From Lepidurus packardi (taxonomy: Eukaryota > Arthropoda > Branchiopoda > Notostraca > Triopsidae), in the NCBI GenBank assembly GCA_023053545.1, contig JAKZAN010000002.1:1286375-1350374 (forward strand): a stretch of 64,000 bases of DNA, given 5' to 3'. How positions within the stretch are numbered: the stretch's first letter is position 1; the number at the start of each line of letters is the position of its first letter. The notes under the pieces were generated by a model that was not told where the DNA came from, ran no database searches, and saw nothing but the letters and a program-made list of their open reading frames with translations. The position numbers were made by a program, and so were the translations under genes. This document shows, piece by piece, positions 20,071-64,000 of the stretch.

Positions 20071-20087
20071 TTGGCGACGAGGAGAGG

Positions 20088-24191: not shown

Positions 24192-24238
24192 GTAAAGTTA
24201 TTGGTCATGATTTATTTGTTTTTTTAAAGGGAAAGTGT

Positions 24239-24460: not shown

Positions 24461-24465
24461 TTAAC

Positions 24466-40009: not shown

Positions 40010-40541
40010 TGTCACGGCTATATTTCGCATTGCTTGCTTTTCTCACGCTTTGCTAATCTTTGCAGCCAACTTAGCCCAGAGCTAAGCTGATCCCTGACCC
40101 CATGTACTGGGTTACCTACATGGTGTCGCTTTTCGCTAAACTTCGCAGCTTAGTTAGCACGGAGCTTCGGTGATCCCTGACCCCATGTGCCGAATTGCAA
40201 TCCTGCTGACGGACATGGTGTCGGATAGAGCACCGGAGCTACGTGGGATTGCATGCCCAGCTTTGGCGAATTGTGCCAAGAAGAGTTTAGTTGGTTAGAG
40301 AGTTGAAGGACTAGCCGGTAGTCTGTTAGTGGGAGCGTAAGAGAGTAGTCTGGTAGAGAGAGTCGAAGGGTAGAGTCTTGAGTAGTGTTGTTATGTCCTA
40401 GTCCTCTGTTTTTCATGTAGTGTTTTCGTCCTCTTAACTTTACCACTGTAATCTTCCCGAATACAGTTCTGTAAATCCACCTTTCCCGAACATACTCTAA
40501 TTCCTGACGGATTTGATGCCCTGTCAGATTTAGACGTGACA
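40010..40541 (+). repeat. 5' LTR of Gypsy-A
   Basis: 532 bp, starting TGTCACG and ending CGTGACA (perfect 7-bp inverted ends). The U5 side carries the A-type variant ctctgtttttcatgtagtg near 40400, which differs from the B-type LTRs at 50849 and 62632. Confidence 0.93.
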
Positions 40542-40543
40542 AT

Positions 40544-40561
40544 TGGTGCATCGACCGGGAA
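40544..40561 (+). promoter_or_regulatory. Primer binding site, tRNA-Gly
   Basis: TGGTGCATCGACCGGGAA, 18 nt, is the exact complement of the 3' end (with CCA) of a tRNA-Gly(GCC). It starts two bases after the LTR. The match ends at the base before the copy of A58, the usual 18-nt limit. Confidence 0.92.
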
Positions 40562-40629
40562 AGGTGGTTTGATTGGTAAAGTTAGGCTACGTGTTTTGTG
40601 TTAGAACCTAACTAGGACTTGGGGGTTTC

Positions 40630-43895: not shown

Positions 43896-43898
43896 TGG

Positions 43899-46175: not shown

Positions 46176-47008
46176 CCGAGCGTCTCAATCACACGCTAGC
46201 GGACATGCTTTCGATGTACGTAAGCAGCAACCATCGTGATTGGGATGATTGTTTAGACGCTGTGACCTTCGCGTACAATACGGCGAGGCAGGAGTCCACC
46301 GGGTACTCCCCATTCTATCTCCTCTACGGGAGGGAGCCAAAACTCCCACTCGATGTGGCGATGGGTGCCAATGCCGAGGTAGACGAGATGGAAGACTCCG
46401 CTGACATAAGCAGGGCAGGTCAAATGGCCAGTCGTATAACGAAAGCTTTTAGCGTTGTAAGACAGCGCCTGGGTAAAGTTCAGGCAAAACAAAAGGAGCG
46501 TTATGACGAATCTCACGAGGAGCGTTTCTACGATGTAGGGGATGTTGTATGGGTTTATACTCCGGTTCGGAAAGTGGGGAAGTCGGAAAAACTTCTCCAT
46601 CGCTTCTTTGGCCCATATAAGATTCTCCGTAGAACGTCTCCTGTAGATTACGAGGTCCAGGGGGTCAAAAGACGGAAATCCGACATAGTCCACATTTCGC
46701 GCCTCAAACCCTTTGTGGACAGGGTTAACGACTTTGATGAACCAACTATGTTCGTCAAGTTGGGAGACGAGCGAGATCTCGAAGTGCGCAATCGGACACT
46801 CGAGGTATCGGGTGAAGCTAGCGAGTTGGCGATAGAACCTGCTGACTTGCTTACCCACGAAGCGACCGGGGATGACAACGTAAACCCTCCGGAGCCTGAG
46901 GCTCGCGTTACGGAGAGAGTAACGGACAGTGCTCGCCCGGATGAGCCCGTGGGTTTACGACGATCTCAAAGGAATAAGGGGAAAGTCAGGTTCTATGGGT
47001 GCGTTTAA
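46176..47008 (+). pseudogene. Integrase C-terminal part of Gypsy-A
   Basis: After the frameshift, the frame begins with the catalytic Glu context (TERLNHTL) and runs through FAYNTARQESTGYSPFYLLYGREP and the GPY/F module (HRFFGPYKILRR) to an acidic, then basic, tail with stop at 47006-47008. Confidence 0.88.
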
Positions 47009-47094
47009 CGGGGAGGAGGGTTTAACGAGGAGCAACGGCGTTCTGGTTTTGGCAAGCTTAAGTAAACAAATGGAAGGTAGGGCCCCGTAAATGG

Positions 47095-47808
47095 TTGTAC
47101 TCAACCGGTAAGGCCATTGGAGTGACAATTGCTTGCCACCCAAACCTAAAAGGGAACGGGGAAGGTCAGACTAATACTTTAAAAATTCAGGGGATGGGAA
47201 TTCTCGAAGTTCCCGTTGCATGTGTGGCCATCAGCCCGGAGTGGATTTTAGCCGCTTCCTTGGACTCTTTTGGGCAGTCCAATATCACCTCACGCATGCC
47301 GGCTTGGTCTTTGTCCGCTTTTCCAACTAACCTGACCCAACCACACCTGCCCACGGCCAACCTTACCTGGGTAGACCCGAAAATAGCCGATCACATTAAA
47401 ACACTCGAGAAGGAGAGTGGTGACGTAGCCGCCAGCTGGAGAACTACGTGGGATACCTTCCAGAAAGCAGCCAAGCAGCGCAGAAATCTCTTCGAGGAAG
47501 CTCCCGGCGTATGGGGCGATATCAGCTATCCCTCGATAACCATCTCCGGGTCGTTTACCGTGGTAGTACTAGTGATCGTCGCCATCCTGAGTTGGTGCCT
47601 ATGGCGAGTAACCGCTGGACGTGACCAAGCGCTCCTGACACGGATCGAGCAATTGGAGGCAACCTTACGGCTCCATGAGCCAGCCGCCTTGGGCAGACCC
47701 AGCTACAACATCGACGCACTTGTGCGACGTGTGCGAGCCATAGAAGTAAGGATGCGTGACCATGGAGGCGTACTCCCGCTGACCATGGAGGGAACCGCCG
47801 ACCAGTAA
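47095..47808 (+). CDS. Env-like membrane protein, C-terminal part (Gypsy-A)
   Basis: 237 residues with a TAA directly upstream (47089-47091), so the N-terminal part is missing or would come from splicing. The first half has N-glycosylation sequons (NITS, NLTQ, NLTW). A membrane helix follows (SFTVVVLVIVAILSWCLW, about 153-170), then a cytoplasmic coiled-coil-like tail. Sequons only before the helix fit a type I glycoprotein such as a retroviral-type Env. A diverged copy is at 61726-62400. Function not shown by any catalytic motif. Confidence 0.6.
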   Translation: MYSTGKAIGVTIACHPNLKGNGEGQTNTLKIQGMGILEVPVACVAISPEWILAASLDSFGQSNITSRMPAWSLSAFPTNLTQPHLPTANLTWVDPKIADHIKTLEKESGDVAASWRTTWDTFQKAAKQRRNLFEEAPGVWGDISYPSITISGSFTVVVLVIVAILSWCLWRVTAGRDQALLTRIEQLEATLRLHEPAALGRPSYNIDALVRRVRAIEVRMRDHGGVLPLTMEGTADQ

Positions 47809-48052
47809 TCAAGACAATCAGTGTAGTGGTAGTGTCGTACTTGTTCCCCTCAGTACAAGTTACCCCAAAGTATCCACGGTTTAGTCTAGTGTTTAACCAG
47901 TAGTTATCAACTATTAGGTGTGTACGCTTGCTGATTTTAACCATGTGCTTGCAAGCTTGTCATTAAATTTCGCCTGGCATTGCCCCTAGATGGTGTAGCT
48001 GACTAGGGTCCGCTTGTTTCGACCGGGACGTTTGAAAGCGGGCCGGGGGTAA

Positions 48053-48550
48053 TGTCACGGTTATATTTCGCATTGCTTGCCTTTCTCACGCTTTGCTAAA
48101 TCTTTGCAGCCAACTTAGCCCAGAGCTAAGCTGATCCCTGACCCCATGTACTGGGTTACCTACATGGTGTCGCTTTTCGCTAAACTTCGCAGCTTAGTTA
48201 GCACGGAGCTTCGGTGATCCCTGACCCCATGTGCCGAATTGCAATCCTGCTGACGCACATGGTGTCGGATAGAGCACCGGAGCTACGTGGGATTGCATGC
48301 CCAGCTTTGGCGAATTGTGCCAAGAAGAGTTTAGTTGGTTAGAGAGTTGAAGGACTAGCCGGTAGTCTGTTAGTGGGAGCGTAAGAGAGTAGTCTGGTAG
48401 AGAGAGTCGAAGGGTAGAGTCTTGAGTAGTGTTGTTATGTCCTAGTCCTCTGTTTTTCATGTAGTGTTTTCGTCCTCTTAACTTTACCACTGTAATCTTC
48501 CCGAATACAGTTCTATAAATCCACCTTTCCCGAACATTACTCTAATTCCT
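48053..48550 (+). repeat. 3' LTR of Gypsy-A, truncated at its 3' end
   Basis: Begins TGTCACG after the polypurine tract gaaagcgggccgggggtaa. A-type variant. Stops after ctctaattcct, where Harbinger sequence starts. Confidence 0.92.
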
Positions 48551-48551: not shown

Positions 48552-48941
48552 CGAAAGAAGGGAGCTCTTGATTTAAATAAAAGGAGCGGAAACACCAGGA
48601 CCTCTGTAGAATACGAAGACGAGCTAAGCAAGATTGCCTCGCTGGACGACTCGATAGAGCCTGAGATAAGAAGGGGAGTTGGCATTGTCGCCCACAAGGA
48701 AACTGTCTCGCAGAAGGAAGACGCTACGGAGAAACAAACGGTTCCGTCCCCCAACACGAGCGCAAATTCTGACGAGGAGCCTGAAAGAAAGAAAACGAAG
48801 TATTCAACAGTTCAAAACTTACTATTGGAATTTCACAAGGAAAAGCAAGAGTCCAACCGGAAGAAAGAAGAGATGAAGGATAAGCGCCATAAAGAGCGTC
48901 TGGAATTGATTAAATCCCTTTTGGAGAAACAAGCTGCGTGA
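48552..48941 (+). pseudogene. Harbinger partner protein, C-terminal part
   Basis: Open from the breakpoint at 48552 to TGA at 48939-48941. Acidic middle (SVEYEDELSKIASLDDSI), a basic patch ERKKTK, and a charged helix with KEKQESNRKKEEMKDKRHKE, typical of the tail of MADF/Myb partner proteins. The DNA-binding N-terminus was removed by the fusion to the LTR. Confidence 0.6.
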
Positions 48942-49298
48942 ATTTTTTGGCCCGGTTCGCAATTCTAATTTTTACCAGTACTCAAATCTTAACTCTGTGA
49001 TTTTCACTGCCTTGTAAGATGACTGCCAAAATTCTCAGTGATTCAATGTTACCTCAGTGTTATAACTAAGTCATCGTTTATCAAACCAATGTCATGTTTA
49101 TCCAAGAAACGTTAAGATCTCATCCAGGTAAATTTGTATTCCGGAATGTACGTAAAGTTAGTAAAACTGTCAGTGAGTTCTGAAAATGGGAGGCAAAGTT
49201 GTTACGTTTTCAATACAATTTTTGCGAAATTTTCGTTTAATGAAAAATAGTTTTTTTTTTTTTTTTTTTACCACAAGATATGCAGATTTCAATCTGTC

Positions 49299-50640
49299 TT
49301 AACTAGCCATTTGTATGGCTAGGCGCTCCCGCTTTGCTTCTCCGCGGAGTCGCGTTTCGGCTTCTCGCCCGCTTGCTTGAGGGCAATCTTCTCCGGCAGG
49401 GTTGTTTTCTTCGGGGACAGTATCGAACTCAATGTCGTTGTTCCGAATACACAAATTATGAAGAACGCAGCAAGAAATAATAAACTTAGTTATCTTATCC
49501 ACACTGTGGAATTCCAGATGCTGAAGTTGCCGGAACCGTTGTTTGAGAATGCCAAAGGCATTCTCAATTAGTGCCCTCGTTGAGCTTAGCTTGCGGTTGA
49601 ATTGGAGTTTTTCAGGGGTTAAGTTTCCGAAATCTTTGTGTGGCGTCATTAGCCATTCGGACAGTGGGTATGCTGAATCTCCTAAACTAGAACGTTTTAA
49701 TATTTTAGTTAATGATTTGAAAGCTTACCAAGTAGATGGTAATCGCCGTTGCAGATAACAGGCAAGTCCTTAGAGATGAAAGACATCTTGTAGATGCGGG
49801 CATCATGGATTTTGCTGGGTGTTCCCGTAAAGACGTCGAGAAATGCTCTATTCGCGTCACAGATGCCTTGCATTGTTACGGATACCTGGTCGTGGCGATT
49901 CACGTAGGTAGACCGTATTTTATGTGCTGGTGTTCTGACGGATATGTAGCTTCCGTCTATGCACCCGAGCACCCCAGGGAATCCAGCAACCTAATAAATA
50001 GCCTCTATTGACTCTTAAAGCGCTAAATAGCAGTACTTACCCTATAAAATTCATCGGCTAGTTTTCGCTTTGCCTCCACAGTACTGGGAAAAGATATGTA
50101 CAGTGGCGCGATGTCCAGCAAAAACTCCATTACTTTGTTTATTTGGCGAAACAGTGATGTCTCGCCAATCCCGAAACGACCAGCAGTGTCCCGCAGACAC
50201 GCTTTATTACCTGCAAACCTATAAACTGATTGTTATAATTTATCTAAAGACCCATGAAGTACCATAGGAATGACAAGATGTAATTGTCGGCTGAGTTAGG
50301 AGGAATACCCCCACGCGTACAACTTTTCGGGTAGAAATCAGAATTATGGAATAACGTGATAAGTTGGTCGCATACCCGCCGAGACATTCGGAAGTTCTTC
50401 CTGAACTAAAAACGAATAGAGAACTGGATATTATAAACGAATAATCACAAGGTAGCTAGGTTACCTCTTCGTCCGAGTACAAACGTATTATGGACCCGTA
50501 GTTCCTTATTTTGGGCCTGGGAATTTGATAATCCGCAAGTAAAAAAGCCATTTCATCACTGTCACTGTCACTACTAGAACTTGAGGACGACATTTCCTCT
50601 AAAAGAAGAAAAAGTAACTTTTGTTTTTGTGTTGGGTTCA
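49299..50640 (-). CDS. Harbinger transposase, multi-exon
   Basis: Minus-strand exons: serine-rich start (about 50600-50460), FRKNFRMSRRVCDQL (about 50400-50290), ACLRDTAGRFGIGETSLFRQINKVMEF (about 50205-50035), VLGCIDGSYISVRTP with the first catalytic Asp through VICNGDYHL (about 49990-49735, donor GTAAGC), and GDSAYPLSEWLMTP through RALIENAFGILKQRFRQL to stop at 49299. The DDE core and HARBI1-type ENAFGIL signature are present. Introns are short with good GT-AG signals. It may be coding-competent, but the element has lost an end and is probably immobile on its own. Confidence 0.8.
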
Positions 50641-50848
50641 TATTTGGCGCCAAACCTACCGCTCTCAAACTGTAGCACTGCCGAAAAAGTTAGAGCTGCA
50701 AAAGCTGCCCTTGGCCGCACTTTCCAGTGCGCACCTTCCCAAAGGAATTTGCCCAGTGTCACTGAACTTGCTCTCGCTTCCCAAAGGAAAACGCAAAGTG
50801 CACTCAGTGGATGAAAGTTCAGCACTAGGGCTCCCAAAGGAAAACGCC

Positions 50849-51037
50849 ATTAGAGAGAGTCGAAGGGTAGAGTCTTGAGTAGTGTTGTTATGTCCTAGTC
50901 CCCCTGTTCTCTGTACAAATAGTCCCTCTTAACTTTACCACTGTAATCTTCCCGAATACAGTTCTATAAATCCACCTTTCCCGAACATTACTCTAATTCC
51001 TGACGGATTTGATGCCCTGTCCGATTTAGACGTGACA
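50849..51037 (+). repeat. 5' LTR of Gypsy-B, 5' part missing
   Basis: Matches the end of the Gypsy-A LTR through CGTGACA at 51031-51037, with the B-type variant. The upstream two thirds were lost with the Harbinger insertion and fusion. Confidence 0.92.
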
Positions 51038-51039
51038 AT

Positions 51040-51091
51040 TGGTGCATCGACCGGGAATCGAACCCGGGCCGCCCGCGTGGCAGGCGAGCAT
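51040..51091 (+). other. Primer binding site extended into a tRNA-Gly copy
   Basis: 51040-51057 is the normal 18-nt primer site. 51058-51091 continues as the complement of tRNA-Gly(GCC) through the T loop, variable region and anticodon arm to the 3' side of the D stem. The antisense reading shows the T-arm GGTTCGATTCC and the anticodon arm with GCC. The 5' quarter of the tRNA is absent. This is a reverse-transcribed primer, not a tRNA gene. Confidence 0.9.
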
Positions 51092-51103
51092 CCCCCCCCC
51101 CCC
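51092..51103. other. C12 homopolymer at the tRNA/flavivirus junction
   Basis: Twelve C lie between the tRNA copy and viral sequence. In frame they read Pro, and NS1 may itself carry Pro codons at this point, so the exact crossover lies somewhere in this run. Non-templated C addition by reverse transcriptase is an alternative source. Confidence 0.8.
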
Positions 51104-51215
51104 TCATTCTGGTCTGGAGACTACTGCTGGTATCCCATGGAGATCAGGCCATCAAGGTCAACCACCAGGCACGTCGAGACGCAATTCGACTCTTTGAAGT
51201 CAAAACTCTTTGTTT
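51104..51215 (+). pseudogene. Flavivirus NS1, C-terminal fragment
   Basis: The frame begins with viral sequence right after the C run and contains YCWYPMEIRP, the conserved end of flavivirus NS1 (a secreted glycoprotein that also acts in the replication complex). About 35 residues remain, ending at an Ala/Val site before NS2A. The start codon at 51032 belongs to LTR sequence and is not viral. Frame is open from the LTR through the tRNA copy. Confidence 0.85.
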
Positions 51216-52235
51216 CCGCGGTCTCGGGAAACTGGTGGGGGGGGGGGGGGGTTGGTGCTTCCAACCCCCTTTCCGGCGTTGTCCTCGAGATGGTTCTACT
51301 AACTTGCTTATTCTGGAATAAGAACGGCCACATGAAGCTGTACGGAAGGGACATGCTCCTGGGTGCCGCGATCCTCATAGTTGGTTCATCAACTCTAGGT
51401 GTGAGTGACCTCCTTGCTTTCACCTGCCGCATGGTCTATGGGATCATCAATATTGACAACCACTTGCTCACCCAGGACGAGAGATACTTCTTCTTAGCCT
51501 CGCTCATAAGCACTGGACCAGGTGTTACCAGCATTGCGAGATGGATGAACTTTACGCCCGTGACCACTCTCGTGATCTTGTTCACCTTCATGGCCGTGGT
51601 AGACTATAGCAACGAGATGGGAACAGTCCTCGAGGGACTGTGTTTCTTCTACGCCCTCTCAAGAGTTACAAAGAACCGTGACCTCCGGTTCCTCCTCCTC
51701 AGCGTGCTTGCCTCCAGGGCCATTAAAGAAGTGGCCATCGTCGGGTTCGTAGCGTGGTCCGGGGCCCGGTTGTTCGAGGTTTTTCGCTTAAGAGGGAGAG
51801 TTGGAATTACGAGTCTAAAGGGCGGTGATGAGGTCGTGGGTGGTCTCATCCTCAGCCTCACGTGGTTTTTCGTAGTGGGGGCGGGAAACTACCCCGTCCC
51901 AACTGAAGCACTGTTCGTCGGATCCATGGTCATTCTCTCCATTCTCCTTGGGAGCTTAAGCTACAGTGGGGATCTCCAAATAGAGCGGGTCTGCACACTC
52001 AGTTATTTACCAACAGACGAGGTTCTTACTGACAAGGAGGACTTCGAGGCGTCCATAGATGAGCACGGATCCATTCAAGTCACATCATTCTCGCAACCCC
52101 TTGGAAACGTCCAGGGTTCTCCCTGGGTCATTGGGACAATATTCTGCGGAATTATGCTGGGTGGTTTGTCCGGTGGCGCAATAGTCGCTCTTTTAGCCTT
52201 CATCTTGAGCCGAGGTAAACTCAGATCTTTTGAAG
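51216..52235 (+). pseudogene. Flavivirus NS2A-NS2B region
   Basis: Multi-pass membrane sequence between NS1 and NS3. NS2A has several hydrophobic helices, for example MLLGAAILIVGSSTLG and VTTLVILFTFMAVVDYS. NS2B is recognised by position and by its acidic central segment DKEDFEASIDEHG (about 52032-52070), which wraps the NS3 protease as cofactor, flanked by helices (the last is WVIGTIFCGIMLGGLSGG and what follows). The NS2A/NS2B boundary is approximate. A G15 run at 51237-51251, just after the NS1 end, encodes Gly and is probably expanded or misread. Confidence 0.8.
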
Positions 52236-52842
52236 ACACGCTGAGAGGGAACGTGGTGATAATGGGCCCCCACCATGGAGTGGTGGAACCGGGCATCTAC
52301 CGTATCTTCCAGACTAATTTCCTGGGAAAGAAAAAACAAAAGGGGGTCGGGACTGTTGTCAACAACGTGCTCCATACTAGCTGGCACGTCACCGGTGGTG
52401 GCCGCCTCGTCCTCAACGGTCGTTACCTCCTCCCATTCCAGGAATCTATATCCAACGACATAATCACGTACAATGGAGCGTGGCAAGGGAGGGGTAGAAA
52501 CACTCAGGTCGTTCAGCTTTGTGCATTGGTCCCCGGGGACCACTTGGAACGAATTTCTATCAACGCCGGAGAGGCAATGATTAACCTCACGGACGGGAAA
52601 AGGCGCCGCCTCACCATCAAGAAGGATTTTCCCCCAGGCACCTCGGGCAGCCCTATCATCAATTCTTATGGCGAATTCATAGGAGTTTACGGATTTGGGG
52701 TGTATGGCCACGACGGTGAGTACGTCAGCCTAGTGTCCAAAGTCGATGAGGACCAGGTCCTCGCTCCGGACGTCGGGCTCACCCCTGAAGAAGAGCAATG
52801 CGCGCTCAAGGCCGGACGGCTGGTCTGGAACACCCTCCACCC
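52236..52842 (+). pseudogene. Flavivirus NS3 serine protease domain
   Basis: Trypsin-like protease that cuts the viral polyprotein together with NS2B. The triad is intact: His in WHV (codon 52385-52387), Asp in the SNDII block (codon 52457-52459) and Ser in GTSGSP (codon 52643-52645). The substrate-pocket region VYGFGVYG follows. The frame is uninterrupted to the G15 tract at 52843-52857, where it is lost. It then runs on out of frame to a stop at 52886-52888. Confidence 0.92.
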
Positions 52843-54010
52843 GGGGGGGGGGGGGGGAAACCACCCGCGTCATCCGCCGACTTGTTGAACTAGGTAAGGC
52901 CAATGGCAAGAGGATGCTTGTCCTTGCCCCCACTAGGGTCGTTAAAGAACAGTTGTTAACTAGTCTCAAGGATCTGGGGGCCACCGATAGCGTTAAGAGG
53001 AGGAGCCTTGTCAGCGTAGGGTGTCACGCGACGTTCTTCTCTGAAATCCTCCGTGGGAGTAATAGGTTTTTCGACCTTTACATCGTCGACGAGGCCCACT
53101 ACGTGGACCCCTCTTCCATAGCCCTCCGCGGCTGGATATCAAACGAGGTCCATGAGGGGAGGACCTCCGCCCTCTTCTGCACAGCCACCCCTCCTGGCAG
53201 TAGCGACAACTGCGAGAGCAATTACCCGATAGTGGAAACGAGAATAAGCCCCAGGGACATATCGAAATCTTATTTTCAGGGAAGGGACGTAGACTTCTCA
53301 GCCAGGAAGATCAGGGCAAAAGTGGGTCCAGGGAACCTGTGCGTGTTCTGTTCATCGATCCGCGAGGCAAGGGACCTCGCCCAGGACGCCATGCGGGAAG
53401 GAGAGAGAGCTCAAGAGCTCCACAGTGGCAATTTCGACGAAACTTACCAGCGCCTCCTCAAGGAACCTCCGAGTTTCTTGGCCACCACAGACATATCCGA
53501 GCTAGGTGCCAACTACGATCTCGACATAGTGGTCGACCTCAGGAGAACCATGAAACCCCTCGTCACCAACTTGGATTTCCCCTCAGAGGAGGTGACTATG
53601 GAAAACTTCCCTGCAAACCATTGCAGTGTTAACCAACGCCGGGGTAGGATAGGACGATCAAAACCCGGCAAGTACTTCTTTTTGGACGAAGAGCCTCTTG
53701 AATATCCAGGCGAGACTGCCATGTATGTAGAAGCGCGTATTCTGCTGGACCAATTCGAAACTCCCATACCTGCCCTAATCCCGGAGGAGCGGAGTGGGAT
53801 GGTTCCGGGAAAACGAAAACTCCTGCCCGACGAGAGGAATGCTTTCACCTCCCTCGTCTGTGATCGGAGTTTTCCTATCTGGCTTGCATACAACGTTTCG
53901 AGGGAAAAGGATGATAGCTGGTTAGTCAACTGTGGAGAGAGCAAGAGGGACGACGCCAAGGAGTTTGCCAAAAGGAATTCCTACCAAAGTATCACCCACG
54001 GCAAACATGC
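52843..54010 (+). pseudogene. Flavivirus NS3 helicase domain, frame-broken at Walker A
   Basis: DExH helicase/NTPase that unwinds viral RNA. The Walker A region coincides with the G15 run. The upstream frame enters it with LHPG and the downstream frame leaves it one frame over, and the usual Lys of the P-loop reads Glu. All later motifs are present: LAPTRVV (Ia), VDEAH (II, near 53085-53099), TATPPG (III), the SSIREARD block, ATTDISELGAN and QRRGRIGR (VI, near 53634). The ORF start at 52746 lies upstream in the wrong frame and is not a viral start. Confidence 0.92.
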
Positions 54011-55364
54011 TGGCCAGCCATTTAGGCCCAAATGGATGGACCAGCGAATGTTCGAGAGGGGAAAAATGAGACCTTTTATGCACGCCTACCTGAGCGGCCA
54101 GCAGGTGTACAGGACAGACTTCGGACTAGCCACCAACATAGTTGCAGCCGTATTCGAGACCTTTGCCGTTGCCGAGCTTTTCTTCAATGAGGACTTCGGG
54201 TCTTTCTCAGACAAGTTGAAGGCCCAGATCTACGGATATGTCGGATTGTGGGCTATAGTGGGCAGCTTGGTCTTCCTGGGCTTTATATCCCGGGTATATA
54301 CCATGTTGACACGGAAAGAGGAGCGCCCCATTCCTGACAAGTACAGCCAGGGTAGAGAGAGGAACCTCATCCAAATGGCGTTTGCATTCACCGTTCTTTC
54401 CACTTCCGGTTACCTGTTTTATGGGATGTATGTCGGAGTCTTGGACGTCAAGCACTGTATAGTAATATGCTTTTGCATTATGGTTTTCGTTGGATGCTAC
54501 GTCCATGAAGCATCCAGTTACCGAAGCCTCCAGGACAACGCCTTGTCTATCCTTTACTGGGCAACGGCGGTCATCGGCGTGGCAGTCGCCATGAATGAAA
54601 TGAACCTTCTCGAGAAGACCAAGCATGACCTTTTCGGCCGCCGGGAATCATCCACGTCTCCCAATGTCCCCCGCTGGAATGAATGGATGTTCGCCGACGG
54701 GGACTTGGCAGCCGCCATGAGTTCCCTGAATGGCCTCCATGCTCTGGTGATGCCCTGGTGGCGGAAGCGAGCCAAGCTTAGAGCCGAGGTCAAGCTAGCT
54801 GGGTCGGAACCCAACATGGGGCCCCTCAGGGATGTGGATGTCCCATTCCCTTGGGAGAGTCTCGGCATCCCGGAATTCTTCATATTTGTGGTCTTCGTCC
54901 GCTCGGTTTTCGTTGGGAGTTTCGCCTCCCTGGTGCTGGGCGGAGCTGTCGGTGGGTTAGCTATCTACTTCACTGTCAGCCATGACGGAGCGGTAATTCT
55001 CAACAACTACCTCCGTCGTTTCTACTATTCCAGGACCAAAAATGTGGAAAGCCAAGGAGTCGACACAAATGACATCGAGCAGCTGTTCTCTTCAACCAGG
55101 GACGTTTCAAGCGATGTACATAGCTTCATGACGCTCGTGCTCACTTTCGTTTACTGCTGGAATTTTCGCAGCACCAATACCCTAGCCGAGGGGGGCCTAA
55201 TCCTTGCTTCCATCGGTGCGAGACTGGGGGGTTTTAGAGTCATGATATGCGCCACGCCCACGGGAGTGTCGTATCTCACAACTCTAAGACACAGCGTGGA
55301 CTACGTGTGCTTGTGCGCCTGGGGACAGATGGCTTACCGGGACTACGTGACGTGGGGAGAGAGG
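54011..55364 (+). pseudogene. Flavivirus NS4A-2K-NS4B region
   Basis: Membrane proteins that anchor the replication complex. Hydrophobic helices recur (for example IYGYVGLWAIVGSLVFLGF and VKHCIVICFCIMVFVGCY). NEMNLLEKTKHDLFG (near 54592-54636) is the conserved start of the NS4B luminal region. Boundaries between 4A, 2K and 4B are approximate. The frame is fully open. Confidence 0.85.
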
Positions 55365-57846
55365 AGAGGAGCTGGTAATGCCCCTGGCAATCTCGGAGTC
55401 ACATGGAAGAGCGCTTTGAATTCTTTGAGCGGAGACGCTTTTCTTAAGTACAGATTCCACAGAGTCCAAGACGTTGGAAAGGGGAACTATGTTAGCAAGG
55501 GGGCTGCAAAGATCTTGTATATGATTGGCAGGGGTTTCCATCCACGAGGTGTCGTCGCGGACCTAGGGTGCGGAAGGGGAGCATGGTCTCAGGTAGTGAG
55601 TTCGCTCGACCAGGTCTCTCAGGTCATCGCGCTAACCATCGGGGGAAAGAAGCACGAGAGGCCAGTCCCCACCAATACCCTAGGATATAACTTAATCAAG
55701 TTTACAGAAGGGGTAGACGTTTACCAGCTGGCACCTTTCAGGTGCGATACTATCCTCCTTGATGTGGGCGAATCGGATCCATCCTGGAGGATTGAAGAAG
55801 GGAGGACACTCAGGAACCTGGACTGCCTCGAAAAATGGCTTCTGGCAAACCCAACTGCTTCTTTCTGCGTTAAAGTTCTCTGCCCGTACGCCCCCCAAGT
55901 TCAAAGGAAATTGAGAACACTCCAGAAGCAATGGGAGGGCCAGATCGTCCGTGCCCCCACTTCAAGAAATTCCACCGCCGAGATGTACTACATATCTGGG
56001 CCCCGAAACAACATCGAGACGTCAGTGAGCAGCGCCATGGGTATGCTCCTCCGGAGATTCGAGGAACACTGGCACCAGCTGCCGGACATGACCCTCGAGG
56101 ATCTGCCCCTTGGAACCCGCTCGGCCGGACCAGGAATCGAGATGTCCCTAGATCTTAGCCAAGAGCGCCTAGACCTCTTGAAGCGCGAGTATGGTCGGTC
56201 CATGTTCACGGATGCAGACAACCCCTACAGAACCTGGAAGTACGTGTTCTCCTGGGCCGCAAACCCCCGCAATCCGGGGGGCCAATCCATCAATGGCCTC
56301 GTGAAGTACATGAGCTGGCTTTGGGACGACGTGAGTGGCGTGGTCAACATGGCTCTGACGGACGTTTCATCCTTCGCTCAGCAAAGGGTTTTTATGGAGA
56401 AAGTCGATCGGAAGATGGAAGAGGTGCCAGACAAGTTCGTGAAGCTCAACAGTTGGATCGCTAGGTGGCTCTGGGAGCGCCTTGGCAAGAGAAAACCTCC
56501 CAGGAGGTGCACCAAAGAAGAGTTCATAGGCCAGGTCCGCAGTGATGCCGCCATAGGAGCTTTTGTCCCAGAACTAAATTTCGAAAGCGCCAAGTTAGCC
56601 GTTGAAGACAACCGATTCTGGAAACTAGTAGCGGAGGAAAAGGCCCGCCACAGGGAAGGGCGGTGCCTCTTCTGTGTCTACAACATGATGGGAAAGAAGG
56701 AGAAGAAGGCTACCCAATTCGGAAAACCGAAAGGGTCTAGGGCCATCTGGTACCTCCCCCTGGTCAGTCGATACATAGAGTTCGAAATAATGGGATTCCT
56801 AAACCAGGACCATTGGTGCAACCGAGACAACCACCCGGGCGGAGTTGGCCAGATAAGCGTAGGATACCTTGGCAACATCATCCGTGGCATAAAACAGACG
56901 TGTGCTTACCTGTTTCCGGAAGATACTGAAGGGTGGGACACGCGGATCACGAGGCACGACCTAGAAGACGAACTCCTCATTACCGAAATGTGCACTCCAG
57001 ACCATAGACACGACATGAAGATGCTCTTCAAGCTCGTTTATATGAACAAGATCGTTCTGCTGCCTAGGCCCTCCCCCAAAGGCCCTTCTGGAACCGTCAT
57101 TGACGTGATCATCAAGCCGGATCAGCGAGGCTCGGGGGAGAACGGTACCTACGCTCTCAACACGATCACCAACACCAAAGTCCTGCTAGGTAGGAGTCTG
57201 GAATCAGAAGGCTTTCTAGAGGAAGCTTGCCTCAGCGAAAAACATTGCAGAAATCTCCTCGAAGCACACGGCGAGAGAATGCTCAGCTGCATGACTGTTG
57301 CCGGTGATGACGGAATGGTGGGAACCAACGAAGCCCGTTTCGCCACCGCGCTCGAGTATATCAATGCGACCGGGAAGCACCGCAAAGGAGTGGGCCTATG
57401 GGAACCCTCCGAGGCCCGCACCAGGTGGGAGGACGTTAGTTTCTGCTCACACCATTTTCACGAGATGCTGATGAAGGATGGACGCAATATCGTCGTCCCG
57501 TGTCGTGACCAGCATGAACTGATAGGCAGGGCTAGAATACAAACAGGGTACCAACCCAACCATCAGGAAAGCTGCATGGGCGGGAAGGCCTATGCAAACA
57601 TGTTCCTTTTATACTTCTTCCACAGAAGAGACCTGCGCATGCTTGCTCAAGCCATCAACTCTGCCGTCCCAGTGGACTGGGTTCCAACTGGTCGTACCAC
57701 GTGGAGCGTGCATCACGGCCACGAATGGATGACAAATGAGGATATGCTACGGGTCTGGAATCGATTCTGGATCGAAAACAACCCGTGGATGGAAGACAAA
57801 CGACCAGTGGAGAGCTGGCGCGACATTCCTTACCTCCCCAAGGGCC
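55365..57846 (+). pseudogene. Flavivirus NS5 methyltransferase-polymerase, cut by hAT
   Basis: Caps and copies viral RNA. The methyltransferase domain has DLGCGRGAW (SAM site, near 55560) and the K-D-K-E tetrad at codons 55509, 55761, 55872 and 55980, with spacing of 84, 37 and 36 residues. The polymerase has SRAIWYLPL (fingers), DTEGWDTRIT (motif A, codon 56922), GSGENGTYALNT (motif B), GDD at 57303-57311 (motif C), and motif E with FCSHHFHE. The frame is open to the hAT insertion. The residues after DIPYLPKG in the open frame are hAT sequence. The true continuation is after 61595. Confidence 0.93.
57839..57846. repeat. Target site duplication of the hAT, left
   Basis: CAAGGGCC, repeated exactly at 61596-61603. 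Eight bases is the standard hAT length. Confidence 0.95.
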
Positions 57847-58073
57847 CAGTGTTGCCAGATTTTTTAAAGATCGCCCGCCAAAATCGCTTGTAAAGTAGCC
57901 AAACTTCTCGCCAATTTTTTTTAAAAAGAAGTCGCCAAAGTACTCGCCAAAATACATAGATAATCTCGTCGAAGCCCGATAATACTATAACTATATTTTA
58001 AAAATGATGCTTTATACAATTAAGTTTACATACACATTAGTCAGGGTCAATACAAAATTTAAAAACAAAATAT

Positions 58074-60161
58074 TTACATAACATAATCAGATAAATCCTC
58101 ATCGTCATTATTTTCGTACATATTGCTATTCATTTTCTCCAACATTTCCGGTGATGGCTCAAACAATTGGCAACAAATTCCTTTAATTTTGAGACCATAT
58201 TTTACATGCAAAATTTGCCTTAAGGTGGAACTCGACATCCTGTTTCTCAGCTTTGACTTTATAATGTTAACATGACTAAATACTCTCTCGCATGCAGCGT
58301 TACTAAAAGGTAGTGAAAGCAGAGATAAAACAGTTAATGCTAAATCTTGGAAAGGTTTTTCACCGATAGAATCGGTATACGTAAACACTTTGGCCCAAAA
58401 TTCCGAACTGTCACACAGAACATCTTCGCTGACATAATTTTGCCATTTAACACAAAGAAAATTACGCCACTGGTTTTCAAGTGTTGTTATGCATGCAGTC
58501 TGGGGCAAAAAAGGCAAGTCTTTGAATTTCGGAGGGTTATTGCTCAAGATCGCGTGCGGGGAATAAAAACCAAGCTTTCGAAAAAGTTTTAAGTTAGTAG
58601 GTAGCCGTAAAAGTAACTGCTTGGTTAATTCCACTAAAAAATTAATGCAAATTTTTCTAACTGCGTCTTTCTTTTCCTCACATGTAGCAGCCGATAAAGC
58701 CTGTTCAAATGAAAATCCTAGATCTATTTCCCCATCCTTCATCATGTTATGGTCAACAATAACGGTTGACGTTATATCACTTTGGATGACTTTCGGGACA
58801 ATGAAGCGTTTTATCAAGGTACCTACGTAGATCTCGAGTTCTTGGAATAACATGAAACTATCAATTGAATCTTTCTGAAACTTCGTGTTAAATTTTTCAA
58901 CTTCTTCTAGTATGGGTTGCAAAAACATAAAATATAAACGATTTGGCTCGTCGCGATACATATCACGCAAAAGATTTGCTGTGTAACAGCGCTCTTTTGT
59001 AACTATAGTTTCAAAGAAAGCTTTCAAAACATCCCATTGGTCTAAAATTCTAGTAATACAACGTGATATGGACAGCCAACGAGTTGATGCAGGTGAAACA
59101 AACGTCAGTGGGGTATTAACAGAATCAGAATCACCGGCATCGATAACATCGTAGACCTCCCGATACAATGTTCTGCGCATGGGACTATTTGAAAACCAGT
59201 TATACGTTTCTCTAATCATGAATTCAATATGTTTTGGAAAAACTAAACTAGCTTTCGAGGCTGCTAAATGTAAAGAGTGGCAAACGCACTTAACCAAAAT
59301 TAAGCCAGGAACCTGTTCTCGAAGCTTTGTGTACAATGAATTATTTGCGCCACACATTGCACTTGCACCATCAGTCCCTATCCCGACAAGGTTTTTCAAA
59401 GACAAACTCTTCTCGGATAAGAAACCTGTTACGGCTGTGTATAGGTCGGCTGCCGTAGTTCCACCTGGCATGTCAATAATACCAAGAAACGTTGTTTTAA
59501 TAGTGCGTGCAGTTTTTGAAAAGAATCGCACACATAAACATAACGATTTGGATACAGATACGTCGGTAGACTCGTCAAGAAGCAAAGAAAACATAGAGTC
59601 ACCGATTTCATTAAAAAGTTCCTTTTCAAGGCAAGGGGCAACAACCTGCTTAATTATTGCCGTGCATTTGGTGCGTTTTAAGCGTAAATCGTCACCGGTA
59701 GGGCTAAGCAAACCGCTTGCCTTCAGAAGATCGGTAAGGTGGTCCGTAATCCTGATACTGCAGTGGGTGGCCACAAAAACTGCGAGCTTTATTTCCATCG
59801 TCTTCAATTCTTTTGAAGCAACGGAAACCGTGAAACCGGATTGTTCAAGGCGGCTCTGCGAATTTACGTTTGCCCGATCCAAATTTGACTTGTGCTGTTT
59901 TGTTTCCGAGTGTTTCCGTAAGTCGCTTAAGTGGGACCTTATTTGCTTACGGCAAACTCTGCAAAAAGTCTGCGTAGGATCGTCCGCAACTGGAGCAATC
60001 CATCCTATAAGGATTCAGAAGAAGTCCTATAGCTAACTGTGCACGCACGAATCTCACAGAAACTCGCGTTAAAACGGAAGATGAAATATCTTACCTTTAA
60101 GATCGGAAAAGGTTTCCCACTCCTTGCGATAAAGCCTTTTATCGTTCGCGTATTTTCCCAT
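58074..60161 (-). CDS. hAT transposase, two exons, intact
   Basis: Exon 1 60161-60095 starts MGKYANDKRLYRKEWE and ends at a GTAAGA donor. Exon 2 60004-58074 follows a TATAG acceptor, joining in phase as KGWIAP. Together 665 residues. Order: a zinc-finger of the C-x2-C...H...H type (FCRVCRKQ ... LRKHSETKQH), the first catalytic Asp in LLLDESTD, the second in GIGTDGAS, the CHSLHLAAS region, an all-helical insertion, then the C-terminal dimerisation part with LSLPFSNAACERVFSHV carrying the Glu. No stop or shift seen. It cuts at the element's 13-bp ends. Likely young and possibly mobile, though the upstream foldback insertion may affect its promoter. Confidence 0.93.
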
Positions 60162-60174
60162 CCTCTAAACTGCT

Positions 60175-60487
60175 GTACTATACCTTCCAAAAAAATTGAG
60201 TATAGGGAAACCACAGTGGTCTAATCCCCTACCCGTGGGATTAATTAAAGACTGCTTAGCGAACCGGTTTGTAGGCCTCCTGTCTAAAAACCAAACCGAA
60301 ACGTATAGAAAGCGGAATCCGTTTTAACCCTGGGCTGTAGAACAGAGAACTAGGATTCTACTTTCCTTAGTTTTGGTTTGGTTTTAGAGAGGAGCGGGTT
60401 CGAGCGAGCAAATTTTAATTAATCCCACGGGTAAGGATTAGCCCACTGTGGTTTCCCTATACTCGATTTTTTTGGAAGGTATAGTAC
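60175..60487. mobile_element. Foldback MITE next to the transposase start
   Basis: Inverted arms of about 75 bp beginning TATACCTTCCAAAAAAAT, 60179-60483, flanked by GTAC on both sides (60175-60178, 60484-60487). No ORF. Its left edge is 14 bases upstream of the hAT transposase ATG. Confidence 0.85.
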
Positions 60488-60489
60488 GT

Positions 60490-61470
60490 AGATTCACGTA
60501 ATGTTTGAGGTTGGATATTGTAGTAGTCCACTTAAACTTAGCTATTTTTATCTCGTACACAAAACTCATCTCGTGGCTACACGTTCATTCTCTGTATCTT
60601 AGAAATCGAACCCTTTGCCTTTTTATACCTCTTGTGATAAACAACGTACTTTTGGCGAATACTTGGAAAAGTCGTTTTCACTTTCGCGACTAGGCTACGA
60701 CGAAGCGTTGGGGGAGACAAAAAGAAGAAAAAACTACCTGGGAGGCTGTACAAGATCATGAAAATATTTGGATTTCTTCTGGTTGACTATGGCTGACAGT
60801 TTTCTCAAGAAGATATAGTTCCTCTTGTATGTTATCATGTGTCCTTTTTATAACTGCTCGAAAGATAGGCCCCGACCTTGGGCAGTCGAGGAAGAAAGCA
60901 CAATTCAGAACTTTTAGAATAGCGGAAAGTAGACAAAGTTGAAGGATGTAAAAACATAAACTAATTGGAACCGGAGCAGAAGAATGAAATGTGTGGTGCT
61001 TTTGCGCTATTTTCGATGAATTTTAGGGGTGTCAATATGCCCACCTGGAAAAACCATCGACAGGGCAACTTCGCTATTAAACCGTAATATCCAGAAACAG
61101 AAAAATAAGCATATAACTATACTGAGACTGGGGAGCAAAAAGTGTGTTTCTACAGGTTTGCATCAATTTCCTAACGTCTCGAAACATACTTATCCATATT
61201 GCTATCGTTTTTCGTTTGAGCCTCATTTTTATATTTCCCGCCATGAGCAAGGCGTTGATCAAACAGGTCTGACCAATGATGTCCTCTCAGAGAACTAGCC
61301 TGCAGCTTTCGTAAAGTGATAACAAAAGGCCCATAAGGAAGGGGCTACATCCTGCATGTTCCCTCTCTATATATCTCTACTCCGTCTCTACTCTACACTA
61401 TGAACTATTTTGAGACCATGGAGCAGAAAATGCGTTTGTACAGGCTTGCTTTACTTTCATTTAATCAAAA
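60490..61470. other. hAT 5' non-coding region
   Basis: About 1 kb between the foldback element and the right terminal repeats. No coding signal recognised. Probably holds the transposase promoter. Confidence 0.5.
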
Positions 61471-61595
61471 CAAAAAAGCAAAGATACAGTAAAGTCGCCA
61501 AACAAACCGCCATCGCCAAATGCCCAAAAATTGTCGCCAGTTCATGTTTTCAAGTCGCCAATTTTGGCGAGAAATCGCCAAGTCTGGCAACACTG

Positions 61596-61656
61596 CAAGG
61601 GCCAAGACATAGAGTGTGGCTCTATGATAGGCACGAAGGAGAGGAGGAGGGTTTAA
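61596..61656 (+). pseudogene. Flavivirus NS5, continuation after hAT
   Basis: The right target duplication is followed by sequence that continues the NS5 frame with the ECGSMIG block, the conserved tail of the polymerase. About 12-15 more viral codons follow before Gypsy sequence takes over in a purine-rich stretch (from about 61642). The stop at 61654-61656 is Gypsy-derived. The last few tens of NS5 residues and the 3' UTR are absent. Confidence 0.88.
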
Positions 61657-62614
61657 CGAGGAGCAACGGCGTTCTGGTTTCGGCAAGCTTAAGTAAACAA
61701 ATGGAAGGTAGGGCCCCGCAAATGGTTGTACTCAACCGGAAAGACCATTGTAGTGACGAATGCTTGCCACCCAAATCTAAAAGGGGACAGGGAGGGTAAG
61801 ACCAATACCATCAAAATTCAGGGGATAGGGATTATTGAGGTCCCTGTTGCATGTGTGGCCATCAGCCGAGAGTGGATTTTAGCCGCCTCCTTGGACTCTT
61901 TTGGTCGATCAACCACCACTTCACGCATGCCTGCTTGGTCCTTTCCCGCTTTTTCTATTAACCTGACCCGACAACATTTGCCCACGGCCAACCTTACCTG
62001 GACGAATCCGAAGATAGCCGATCACATCAAAGCGTTGGAGAAGGAGAGTGGTGACGTAGCCGCCAGTTGGAGAACGACTTGGGACGCGCTCCAGAAGGCC
62101 GCCGAGCAGCGCAAAAACATCTTCGAGGATCGTTCACAGCCATAGTGTTGGTAATCGGCGCCCTCCTGAGCTAGTTCCTATGGCGAATCACCAGTGACCG
62201 TAATCAGGCCCTCGAGAGATGCATAGAACAATTAGAGGCAACCTTACGGCTCCATGAGCCAGCCGCCTTGGGCAGACCCAGCTACAACATCGACGCACTT
62301 GTGCGACGTGTGCGAGCCATATAAGTAAGGATGCGTGACCATGGAGGCGTACTCCCGCTGACCATGGAGGGAACCGCCGACCAGTAATCAAGACAATCAG
62401 TGTAGTGGTAGTGTCGTACTTGTTCCCCTCAGTACAAGTTACCCCAAAGTATCCACGGTTTAGTCTAGTGTTTAACCAGTAGTTATCAACTATTAGGTGT
62501 GTACGCTTGCTGATTTTAACCATGTGCTTGCAAGCTTGTCATTAAATTTCGCCTGGCATTGCCCCTAGATGGTGTAGCTGACTAGGGTCCGCTTGTTTCG
62601 ACCGGGACGTTTGA
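61642..62614 (+). pseudogene. Gypsy-B env-like remnant
   Basis: From about 61642 the sequence matches 47012 onward of Gypsy-A, including the same start of the env-like region (61726). It differs by many substitutions, a deletion of about 45 bp and stops around 62145, and it lacks the membrane helix. From about 62230 to the LTR it is almost identical to Gypsy-A. Confidence 0.88.
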
Positions 62615-62631
62615 AAGCGGGCCGGGGGTAA
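62613..62631 (+). promoter_or_regulatory. Polypurine tract of Gypsy-B
   Basis: gaaagcgggccgggggtaa directly before the 3' LTR, identical to that of Gypsy-A. Primes plus-strand DNA synthesis. Confidence 0.8.
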
Positions 62632-63031
62632 TGTCACGGTTATATTTCGCATTGCTTGCCTTTCTCACGCTTTGCTAAATCTTTGCAGCCAACTTAGCCC
62701 AGAGCTAAGCTGATCCCTGACCCCATGTACTGGGTTACCTACATGGTGTCGCTTTTCGCTAAACTTCGCAGCTTAGTTAGCACGGAGCTTCGGTGATCCC
62801 TGACCCCATGTGCCGAATTGCAATCCTGCTGACGCACATGGTGTCGGATAGAGCACCGGAGCTACGTGGGATTGCATGCCCAGCTTTGGCGAATTGTGCC
62901 AAGAAGAGTTTAGTTGGTTAGAGAGTTGAAGTACGAGAGAGGAGTCTGTTAGAGAGAGTCGAAGGGTAGAGTCTTGAGTAGTGTTGTTATGTCCTAGTCC
63001 CCCTGTTCTCTGTACAAATAGTCCCTCTTAA
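62632..63031 (+). repeat. 3' LTR of Gypsy-B, truncated
   Basis: Starts TGTCACG. Carries the B-type variant also seen in the LTR at 50849. Ends after gtccctcttaa and passes into unrelated sequence, so the 3' target duplication is lost. Confidence 0.92.
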
Positions 63032-63842
63032 GGCTCCCGTATACCTTAGCTTATTGATACTAAACTCTCACTGGATGGCGTTGGCGTCGGATTGTTTTTT
63101 TGGAAAGCCTTGCATATGACAGTGCAATAGCACAACAGCGCAACTTTTGAACGGCGATTTGCTTCTGCACGGCCAAACGGCGCCAACCTTTGAAAGCTGC
63201 TTTTGCCTATATATGGGCTGTGTAACACAATGAGACAGACCAAATAAAACTTACACTACCTCATTATTTCAATTGCCACGTTTCAGCTTACTAAATAAAT
63301 AAAGCTATAACTCCATAGCTCTAATTTACTTTATCAAAGTAAGTCATATATAGCAAAAAGTAAGCAGAACAATACAAAAAGACGATTGGTCTTGCTGAAA
63401 CAATCAAAGGTGTCATATAACTGACAACCTAAAGCAGCATATAAGTTATACATAGTTCTTTTTACTAGCTAATAGACATATAACTGATGTTGAGGTTTGA
63501 CACATTGAGAATTCCTCAGGTTTGTTATCGCAAATGAACAGAGTTTGTACCGAAAATTAAAATTACTTCAAACTACAAGTTTCTTGCCACATTTTCCCCA
63601 ACAGTTCAGTACACTTGCTTTTCCGCAATCGTTTTTCAACGGAAAAATGTTGCAGTTTCACAACATACGACCTCACATTTTACAAACTGAGCAGAGAATC
63701 CGTCACAGAGGACAAAACACATTTCATGTTCGAATCCAGCTTTGTATCTTTATTTCCAAGTTGGACAGCAAAGTACTCGCAACGTTACTTTTGTTCACGG
63801 AAAGAGTATTCTTATATCGTATTTTAGCGTGACTTTGTTCTA
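63032..63842. other. No recognisable gene
   Basis: AT-rich DNA. Frames at 63243-63046 and 63545-63832 have no recognisable motif. Confidence 0.5.
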
Positions 63843-64000
63843 ATGGGAAGTAAAAGAAATAGAGTTCGTCCCAGAAGAAAAAGGAAATCCGAGTCTGGGA
63901 ATGTCACTGATGGAGTCCCTAACAAACTTCTCAAGGTACAATGTCTTGAAAACGTCAGTGAGTTAGCTTTGACGACAGAGCAAACCCTGGGCACTAGTTT
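63843..64000 (+). CDS. N-terminus of an unrecognised basic protein, runs off the window
   Basis: ATG at 63843 opens a frame to the window end (52 codons). It begins MGSKRNRVRPRRKRKSESGN. This very basic start is common in proteins of some DNA transposons, but that is only a hint. Confidence 0.4.
   Translation, partial: MGSKRNRVRPRRKRKSESGNVTDGVPNKLLKVQCLENVSELALTTEQTLGTS

What the first reader, a model, noticed from the sequence alone, without database searches (positions are those of the whole stretch)
50849..63031. A flavivirus genome segment captured inside an LTR retrotransposon
Seen directly: one LTR end and primer site, then flavivirus NS1(C-term)-NS5 in sense orientation, then Gypsy 3' internal sequence, polypurine tract and LTR. 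The two LTRs share a variant (ccccctgttctctgtacaaa) not found in the neighbouring Gypsy-A and agree over their overlap, so they belong to one element. Known: retrotransposon reverse transcriptases can switch to RNA virus templates (IAP-LCMV recombinants are the classic case). Inference: Gypsy minus-strand synthesis began on Gypsy RNA, jumped to flavivirus RNA near the NS5 end, ran to NS1, and the product was completed with LTRs and integrated. Virus-derived insertions usually sit beside retroelements. Here the virus replaces gag-pol between the LTRs, so the provirus-like structure itself is preserved.
Basis: partly seen in the sequence, partly recalled or inferred. Interest (0 to 1): 0.97.

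Follow-up and report, generated by a model that had tools for sequence, protein, structure and literature searches.

The report
Flavivirus captured inside Gypsy retrotransposon
A piece of an RNA virus genome sits where a jumping element's own genes should be, and a stray copy of the element's tRNA primer left at the join indicates that the element's reverse transcriptase made the hybrid; hybrids of this kind are known, but this footprint shows how one was finished.

Summary
The finding is real, with corrections. Window 50850-63031 holds a Ty3/Gypsy-type element in which gag-pol is replaced by about 6.8 kb of flavivirus (NS1 C-term to NS5, sense). The stated ends are not the element's ends: both LTRs were cut by later DNA transposons (at TTA and at TTAA). 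A 3.75-kb hAT with an 8-bp duplication interrupts NS5.

At the 5' junction the 18-nt primer-binding site continues for 34 more nt of exact tRNA-Gly(GCC) complement, then the virus begins. Eight ordinary Gypsy copies checked by letter match for only 18-19 nt. This is what plus-strand strong-stop DNA looks like when it copies its tRNA primer past A58 and then joins viral cDNA instead of completing normal strand transfer.

A second locus in the same genome repeats the pattern with another LTR family and another tRNA (36 nt copied; 19 in three ordinary copies), followed by an unidentified ORF and then flavivirus sequence.

Virus pieces inside LTR elements are already in print (mosquito CFAV/Gypsy; AeBunya1/Pao-Bel). 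The tRNA over-copy at such a junction did not turn up in ten literature searches. New variant of a known kind.

The parts
40010..48550 (+). Neighbouring ordinary Gypsy copy (Gypsy-A): 5' LTR 40010-40541 (532 bp), PBS 40544-40561, gag/pol/integrase ORFs, 3' LTR truncated at 48550; used as control
48552..50849 (.). DNA transposon, left-truncated, inserted at TTA in the captured element's 5' LTR; I call it Harbinger-like
   Evidence: right end the same in 4 other copies; one copy continues about 640 bp further left to a putative terminal repeat; 'Harbinger' rests on the TTA/TAA target and recall
50850..51037 (+). Remaining 3' part of the element's 5' LTR, ending ..CGTGACA
51040..51057 (+). Primer-binding site, 18 nt complementary to the 3' end of tRNA-Gly(GCC) including CCA
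51058..51091 (+). 34 further nt of exact tRNA-Gly complement from position A58 on: over-extended primer copy, absent from the ordinary Gypsy copies examined
   Evidence: 48-nt core (51044-51091) found at 18 genomic places, this junction plus 17 others; 6 of those 17 were taken as loci, all 6 tRNA-Gly(gcc) by ARAGORN; LTR+PBS+extension pattern only here
51092..57846 (+). Flavivirus NS1 C-terminus to NS5, sense; protease, helicase, methyltransferase (weak) and RdRp domains in order; two long open stretches in different frames
   Evidence: Pfam; NS1 label through the related locus L012, which aligns from 51092 on and carries Flavi_NS1 just before
57847..61595 (-). hAT DNA transposon with transposase ORF 58074-59882(-), inserted later; 8-bp duplication CAAGGGCC at 57839-57846 and 61596-61603
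61604..61642 (+). Continuation of NS5 after the hAT; virus ends here, about 130 nt before the NS5 stop seen in the related locus L016 (C5:11317259)
61643..61651 (+). Virus/Gypsy junction in GGAGGAGGG; Gypsy similarity begins
61652..62631 (+). Gypsy 3' internal sequence (region after integrase), ending in the presumed polypurine tract at about 62614-62631; 62235-62931 equals Gypsy-A except one base
   Evidence: the tract was judged by eye and is not purely purine
62632..63031 (+). 3' LTR, TGTCACGG.., truncated at TTAA by a later transposon
63032..64000 (+). Later DNA transposon (TTAA target), running beyond the window; a 981-aa open frame starts in it

Best explanation
A Gypsy virus-like particle reverse-transcribed a Gypsy RNA and a flavivirus genomic RNA into one cDNA, which was integrated. 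Steps: (1) tRNA-Gly-primed minus-strand DNA made its normal first jump to the 3' end and copied LTR, polypurine tract and 3' internal sequence [inferred from the anatomy]. (2) Just past the end of the integrase gene, in GGAGGAGGG, it switched to flavivirus RNA in NS5 and ran back to NS1 [junction shown, direction inferred]. It therefore never made a complement of the Gypsy primer site. (3) Plus-strand strong-stop DNA from the polypurine tract copied the LTR and then the tRNA primer, past A58, to 52 nt [copy shown; route inferred]. (5) The product integrated and was later hit by a hAT, a TTA-target and a TTAA-target transposon [insertions shown]. The same RT route, with another LTR family and another tRNA, would explain the second locus on C5.
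For: tRNA copy of 52 nt (18 PBS + 34) in exact register with the LTR end. The 48-nt core matches 17 other places; the 6 of these taken as loci are tRNA-Gly(gcc) genes. Ordinary copies stop at 18-19 nt: 8 of 8 by letter. In one search (40 scored of 109 candidates) 35 matches are other LTRs; 21 of them reach the PBS and all 21 end at 51057-51058. The LTR+PBS+extension pattern at up to 3 mismatches occurs once in the genome, here. Virus domains in sense and in genome order. Second case: LTR + PBS + tRNA copy of 36 nt in a C5 array (6 of 40 scored of 88 candidates); 14 other matches that cover the PBS end there; 3 of 3 ordinary copies read match for 19 nt. The two viral pieces searched occur once at 100%; the other matches are 74-79%, with pS 0.81-0.86 against pN 0.06-0.08 for L010, L013 and L016, so the captured virus and theirs were different viral lineages. 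Literature: strong-stop DNA normally stops before m1A58, loss of m1A58 gives extension beyond it, and far-extended products are not active in transfer: PMC13191261 (passages; HIV-1).
Against: No target-site duplication can be checked: the left LTR part was deleted, and the rest of the 3' LTR was not found in the next 9.5 kb. The viral source sequence at both junctions is unknown, so microhomology cannot be scored; the relative L016 differs there. A tract of 697 bp identical to Gypsy-A but for one base means part of the 3' end was exchanged with Gypsy-A or a sister RNA. No raw reads were available. Step 4 could be end joining rather than RT. Short over-extension (to positions 54-55) occurs in normal HIV-1 replication (PMC13191261), so over-copying alone is not proof of failed transfer. 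In the second case the sequence next to the tRNA copy is not identified, the rest of the locus is rearranged, and no 3' LTR was seen behind the integrase-bearing unit in the 13.7 kb held.
Confidence: 0.87

Rival explanations
1. A flavivirus cDNA made independently was inserted into, or recombined with, an existing Gypsy element by DNA repair, deleting gag-pol.
For: Other flavivirus insertions here merely lie beside LTR-element sequence: L010, L011 and L016 adjoin the same antisense segment that I take for Gypsy env (no Pfam family).
Against: It does not explain why the primer site continues in register into 34 nt of tRNA complement before the virus, nor a second such case with a different LTR and tRNA.
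Confidence: 0.07
2. Homologous recombination between the primer site and a tRNA-Gly gene brought the tRNA sequence in, independently of virus capture.
For: Primer site and tRNA genes share the same short sequence; tRNA-Gly genes lie in tandem groups.
Against: The copy includes TGG in register with the LTR and stops inside the tRNA, with no tRNA-gene flank before the virus; it would have to happen twice, each time at a junction with foreign sequence.
Confidence: 0.03
3. Assembly chimera.
For: Homopolymers of 12-15 bases lie at and near the left junction and in NS3; repeats abound; no reads could be checked.
Against: The window lies inside a 13.5-Mb contig; the join is register-exact at the primer site, which random joins would not give; a hAT with matching 8-bp duplication lies inside the viral part.
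Confidence: 0.03

Closest known systems
CFAV NS2A EVE flanked by LTR and gag of Ty3/gypsy in Aedes aegypti Aag2 cells (PMC6797480, passages, section 9 read)
   Same: Insect-specific flavivirus piece flanked by Gypsy LTR sequence; virus/LTR-retrotransposon hybrid reads also seen in infected cells
   Different: There the NS2A region with gag sequence; no primer-site/tRNA junction is described in what I read. Here NS1-NS5 replaces gag-pol and the tRNA copy is visible
AeBunya1 embedded in a full-length Pao-Bel element in Aedes aegypti (PMC5497376, passages)
   Same: RNA-virus piece inside an LTR retrotransposon
   Different: One sentence in the passages seen, without junction anatomy
IAP-LCMV recombinant in mouse (Geuking et al. 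2009; recalled, paper not seen)
   Same: LTR-element RT switches to an RNA-virus template
   Different: From recall: experimental infection in a mammal, not a germline element with viral sequence between both LTRs and an over-copied primer
LTR-mediated retroposition of host mRNAs (Tan et al. 2016, described in PMC5408686, passages; original not held)
   Same: mRNA sequence taken up between LTRs by template switching at microsimilarity
   Different: Host mRNA, not virus; a tRNA over-copy is not mentioned in the passages seen
tRNA-Gly cDNA beside deleted HIV proviruses (PMC12220202, abstract and passages)
   Same: Reverse-transcribed tRNA-Gly joined to proviral DNA
   Different: At the 3' end of the provirus, nearly whole tRNA, proposed self-priming; here a primer copy in register with the 5' primer site

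Membership tests
LTR-retrotransposon-mediated capture (LTR-retroposed copy) | Foreign sequence between two LTRs of one orientation | tested here: met
   LTR fragments 50850-51037 and 62632-63031, both +; both truncated by later transposons
LTR-retrotransposon-mediated capture (LTR-retroposed copy) | Primer-binding site at the 5' side and polypurine tract at the 3' side | tested here: met
   PBS 51040-51057; tract at about 62614-62631 judged by eye
LTR-retrotransposon-mediated capture (LTR-retroposed copy) | Switch points at microhomology | tested here: inconclusive
   GGAGGAGGG on the Gypsy side; the virus's own sequence there is unknown, and the relative L016 differs
LTR-retrotransposon-mediated capture (LTR-retroposed copy) | Short target-site duplication outside the LTRs | tested here: inconclusive
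   Sought but not readable: left LTR part deleted; right remainder not found within 9.5 kb
Flavivirus (family Flaviviridae) endogenous element | NS3 protease/helicase and NS5 RdRp of flavivirus type in order | tested here: met
   Peptidase_S7 2.3e-15, Flavi_DEAD 7.6e-21, Flavi_NS5 1.3e-135
Flavivirus (family Flaviviridae) endogenous element | Placement in a named group (insect-specific or other) | not tested
   NS5 piece 45% identical to Anopheles flavivirus, Cacipacore virus and Nakiwogo virus alike; no tree built
Ty3/Gypsy retrotransposon | gag with zinc knuckle; RT, RNase H, then integrase | tested here: met
   On the neighbouring copy Gypsy-A; the captured element itself has lost gag-pol and is assigned through LTR, PBS and 3' sequence
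BEL/Pao retrotransposon (second locus, C5) | Pao-type integrase (H2C2 plus DUF5641), and the LTR belonging to it | tested here: inconclusive
   Integrase_H2C2 2.8e-9 and DUF5641 1.5e-32 in sense at the locus (that DUF5641 marks Pao/BEL is recalled). The LTR family itself is not proven BEL: the first 1.5 kb of three ordinary copies showed no family above its cut-off

The most novel reading that the evidence does not exclude
An over-copied tRNA primer is the regular signature, and perhaps the cause, of LTR-element capture of foreign RNA. When the minus strand jumps onto a foreign RNA it loses the primer-site complement; the plus-strand strong-stop end then has no partner, reads on through the tRNA past A58, and is rescued only by joining foreign cDNA. 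Two LTR families and two tRNAs in one arthropod genome, each with foreign sequence behind the over-copy, would be the first two fossils of this failed-transfer-and-rescue route, and the signature would let one sort endogenous virus elements by mechanism in any genome.
Probability: 0.4. Interest if true: 0.88.

Novelty: new variant of a known kind. Interest (0 to 1): 0.76.

Why it matters
How RNA viruses without a reverse transcriptase enter animal germlines is usually argued from their neighbourhood: they lie near LTR elements. Here the sequence itself records which enzyme system made the DNA and at which step normal replication went astray. The over-copied tRNA is a testable signature that can be searched for in all genomes. 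It would allow a count of virus insertions made by LTR elements as opposed to LINEs or repair, and it links tRNA modification (m1A58) to virus capture.

Tried and rejected
Rejected: reading 50850-63031 as an R-U5..U3-R copy of the RNA genome. It looked attractive because the 83-bp overlap sits at both ends, but both ends are explained by transposons that end or begin at the same bases elsewhere. Rejected: non-templated C or G tailing at the junction; C- or G-rich tracts stand at the same places in related viral insertions. Rejected: that the shared LTR variant proves one element. Led nowhere: remainder of the 3' LTR; the ~619-aa open frame behind the second tRNA junction, which reminded me of chuvirus nucleoproteins (recall only; no Pfam family; no protein match at 1e-5 among 8000 scored candidates); proof that the second LTR family is BEL/Pao; naming the host (a mitochondrial pseudogene of COX1 matches various arthropods, best about 90%; 162 proteins at E<=1e-60, 120 listed). 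The tRNA gene at C2:3848456 was missed by ARAGORN in bacterial mode; with introns allowed ARAGORN finds an 86-nt tRNA with a long variable arm and a 30-nt intron, which it labels Met(cat); I read it as Leu from the long arm (recall). Not searched in the genome by DNA: the viral stretch 52841-55999.

The claim that the tRNA over-copy at virus/LTR junctions is not in print rests only on the searches, in a library that lacks most subscription papers.
Full report
What is there. The window is C2:1286375-1350374 of an unnamed 108.6-Mb genome in 344 contigs, an arthropod to judge from a mitochondrial COX1 pseudogene (the species was not identified). An ordinary Gypsy element, Gypsy-A, occupies 40010-48550: a 532-bp LTR beginning TGTCACG and ending CGTGACA, an 18-nt primer-binding site TGGTGCATCGACCGGGAA, gag, RT-RNase H-integrase, a further ORF without a Pfam family, and a 3' LTR cut at 48550. 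Downstream lies the element of the finding.

Left side. 48552-50849 is a left-truncated DNA transposon. Its right end stands at the same base in 4 other copies, followed by TTA in two and TAA in two. I infer that it entered the 5' LTR of the captured element at TTA, and that the first part of that LTR was later lost in a deletion that fused the transposon to Gypsy-A's 3' LTR. The surviving 5' LTR part is 50850-51037. Two bases on, the primer site begins at 51040.

The tRNA footprint. From 51040 the sequence matches the complement of a mature tRNA-Gly(GCC), CCA included, for 52 nt without a mismatch, then turns into the C-run of viral NS1. The 48-nt core 51044-51091 occurs at 18 places in the genome, one of them this junction. 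Six of the other 17 were taken as loci and ARAGORN finds tRNA-Gly(gcc) there in all six; the other 11 were not examined. The reversed control pattern gave 0. In 8 of 8 ordinary Gypsy copies checked by letter (Gypsy-A and seven loci) the match is 18 nt, in one of them 19. In one search, 40 matches were scored out of 109 candidates: one is the window itself, 4 are the transposon only and 35 are other LTRs. Of these 35, 21 (Gypsy-A among them) reach the primer site, and all 21 stop at its end. A pattern of LTR end, primer site and extension, up to 3 mismatches allowed, is found once in the genome, here.

Virus. Pfam finds, in order and in sense, flavivirus NS3 protease, NS3 helicase, a weak methyltransferase match below its cut-off and NS5 polymerase (fingers/palm E=1.3e-135, thumb). 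The NS1 label at the left end comes from the related locus L012, which aligns from 51092 on and carries Flavi_NS1 just before that point. The NS5 piece is 45% identical to NS5 of Anopheles flavivirus, Cacipacore virus and Nakiwogo virus (the 8000 candidates sharing most words were scored). 51104-52840 and 52905-57845 are each open in one frame, but in different frames, the change lying near a 15-G run. The C- and G-rich tracts look viral: related insertions have C- or G-tracts of other lengths at the same places.

hAT and right side. A 3749-bp hAT (transposase 58074-59882 minus) splits NS5, with CAAGGGCC on both sides. After it NS5 runs on for about 40 bp and joins Gypsy sequence within GGAGGAGGG at 61643-61651. 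A related insertion, L016, continues there to the NS5 stop about 130 nt later and on into what looks like a 3' UTR. The Gypsy part then holds the region behind integrase, a presumed polypurine tract and a 3' LTR (62632-63031) cut at TTAA by another transposon that begins at the same base in 4 other copies. Its far end, and the rest of the LTR, were not found in the next 9.5 kb. So no target duplication can be read. The stretch 62235-62931 equals Gypsy-A but for one base, while the sequence upstream is 74-88% alike: either co-packaged RNAs recombined or gene conversion followed.

Copies. The two viral pieces searched as DNA occur once at 100%. The NS1-NS3 piece has 5 further matches of 74-79%, the NS5 piece one of 76%; 52841-55999 was not searched. 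A profile search for NS5 finds two loci, this one and C5:11317k, the latter in two pieces. Between the window and L010, L013 and L016 synonymous differences are saturated (pS 0.81-0.86) while pN is 0.06-0.08. That divergence arose in replicating viruses, so the window's capture is separate from theirs. The other loci are not all independent of one another: L010 and L011 are 99.5% alike, as are L013 and L014 (99.8%).

A second case. At C5:10405229-10435784 an LTR is followed by its primer site TGGTGTCAGAAGTGGGAT and then 18 more nt of the complement of a tRNA gene at C2:3848456 (36 nt in all). Then comes a ~619-aa ORF of unknown family and flavivirus envelope/NS1 sequence, and in one unit a Pao-type integrase in sense. 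In one search (40 scored of 88 candidates) six matches carry this junction, four of the five spacings between them being 5338 bp; 14 other matches run through the primer site and end within four bases of it, and 20 end at its first bases or before. Three ordinary copies read out match the tRNA for 19 nt and continue with one shared sequence of their own. I take the LTR to be BEL/Pao because of the integrase; the first 1.5 kb of the ordinary copies gave no family above its cut-off. In the array unit that was fetched, a flavivirus envelope piece also lies further down, and no 3' LTR was seen behind the integrase-bearing unit in the 13.7 kb held. The locus is rearranged and I do not claim a full history for it.

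Mechanism. In HIV-1, plus-strand strong-stop DNA copies 18 nt of the tRNA and halts before m1A58. When the modification is missing it reads on. Products that stop at positions 54-55 still work; those that run to position 37 or to the tRNA's 5' end do not serve in transfer (PMC13191261, passages). If the minus strand had already jumped to viral RNA, no primer-site complement would exist for the second transfer. An over-extended strong-stop end joined to foreign cDNA is then what one expects to see, and what is seen twice. Shown: the anatomy and the tRNA match. Inferred: the order of the jumps, and whether the last join was made by RT or by repair. That m1A58 applies to these two tRNAs in this animal is assumed.

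Known or new. A CFAV NS2A piece flanked by Gypsy LTR and gag sequence (PMC6797480, section 9), AeBunya1 inside a Pao-Bel element (PMC5497376, passages) and LTR-mediated retroposition of mRNAs (PMC5408686, passages) are in print. The IAP-LCMV case is recalled. The tRNA over-copy at such a junction did not turn up in ten literature searches (listed under Tried and rejected). I file this as a new variant of a known kind.

Noticed in passing
C5:10405229-10435784 (L053-L058, L066): Array of at least six LTR/tRNA/foreign-ORF junctions, four of the five spacings 5338 bp, identical over 341 bp; unknown 619-aa ORF plus flavivirus pieces in the parts read
   Followed up: partly
window 51237-51251; L010 1637-1652; L012 1700-1707 (as fetched, other strand): A G-run just behind the NS1/NS2A region recurs in three flavivirus insertions (15, 16, 8 G); in L010 and L012 an in-frame TAG stands directly before it, in the window TGG (read by eye). 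Possibly a viral recoding or slippage site
   Followed up: no
L010 3856-4440, L011 2978-3562 (reverse complement), L016 3991-4575: Three flavivirus insertions adjoin the same 585-bp antisense segment (about 99% alike), which I take for Gypsy env by eye
   Followed up: no
window 62235-62931 and 47656-48352: Near-perfect identity between captured element and Gypsy-A next to sequence only 74-88% alike: recombination of RNAs or gene conversion
   Followed up: partly
window 19849-24462: Apparently young LTR element: identical 224-bp terminal repeats around a 1367-aa ORF
   Followed up: no
G000 contigs C52 and C214: Open COX1-type genes of bacterial appearance, one locus at 66% GC: probably symbiont or contaminant contigs in the assembly
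   Followed up: no
window 2792-4034 with 30799-32203, and 32265-32848 with 37164-37530: Long inverted repeats; 5 of 7 pairs listed are 94-99% complementary
   Followed up: no
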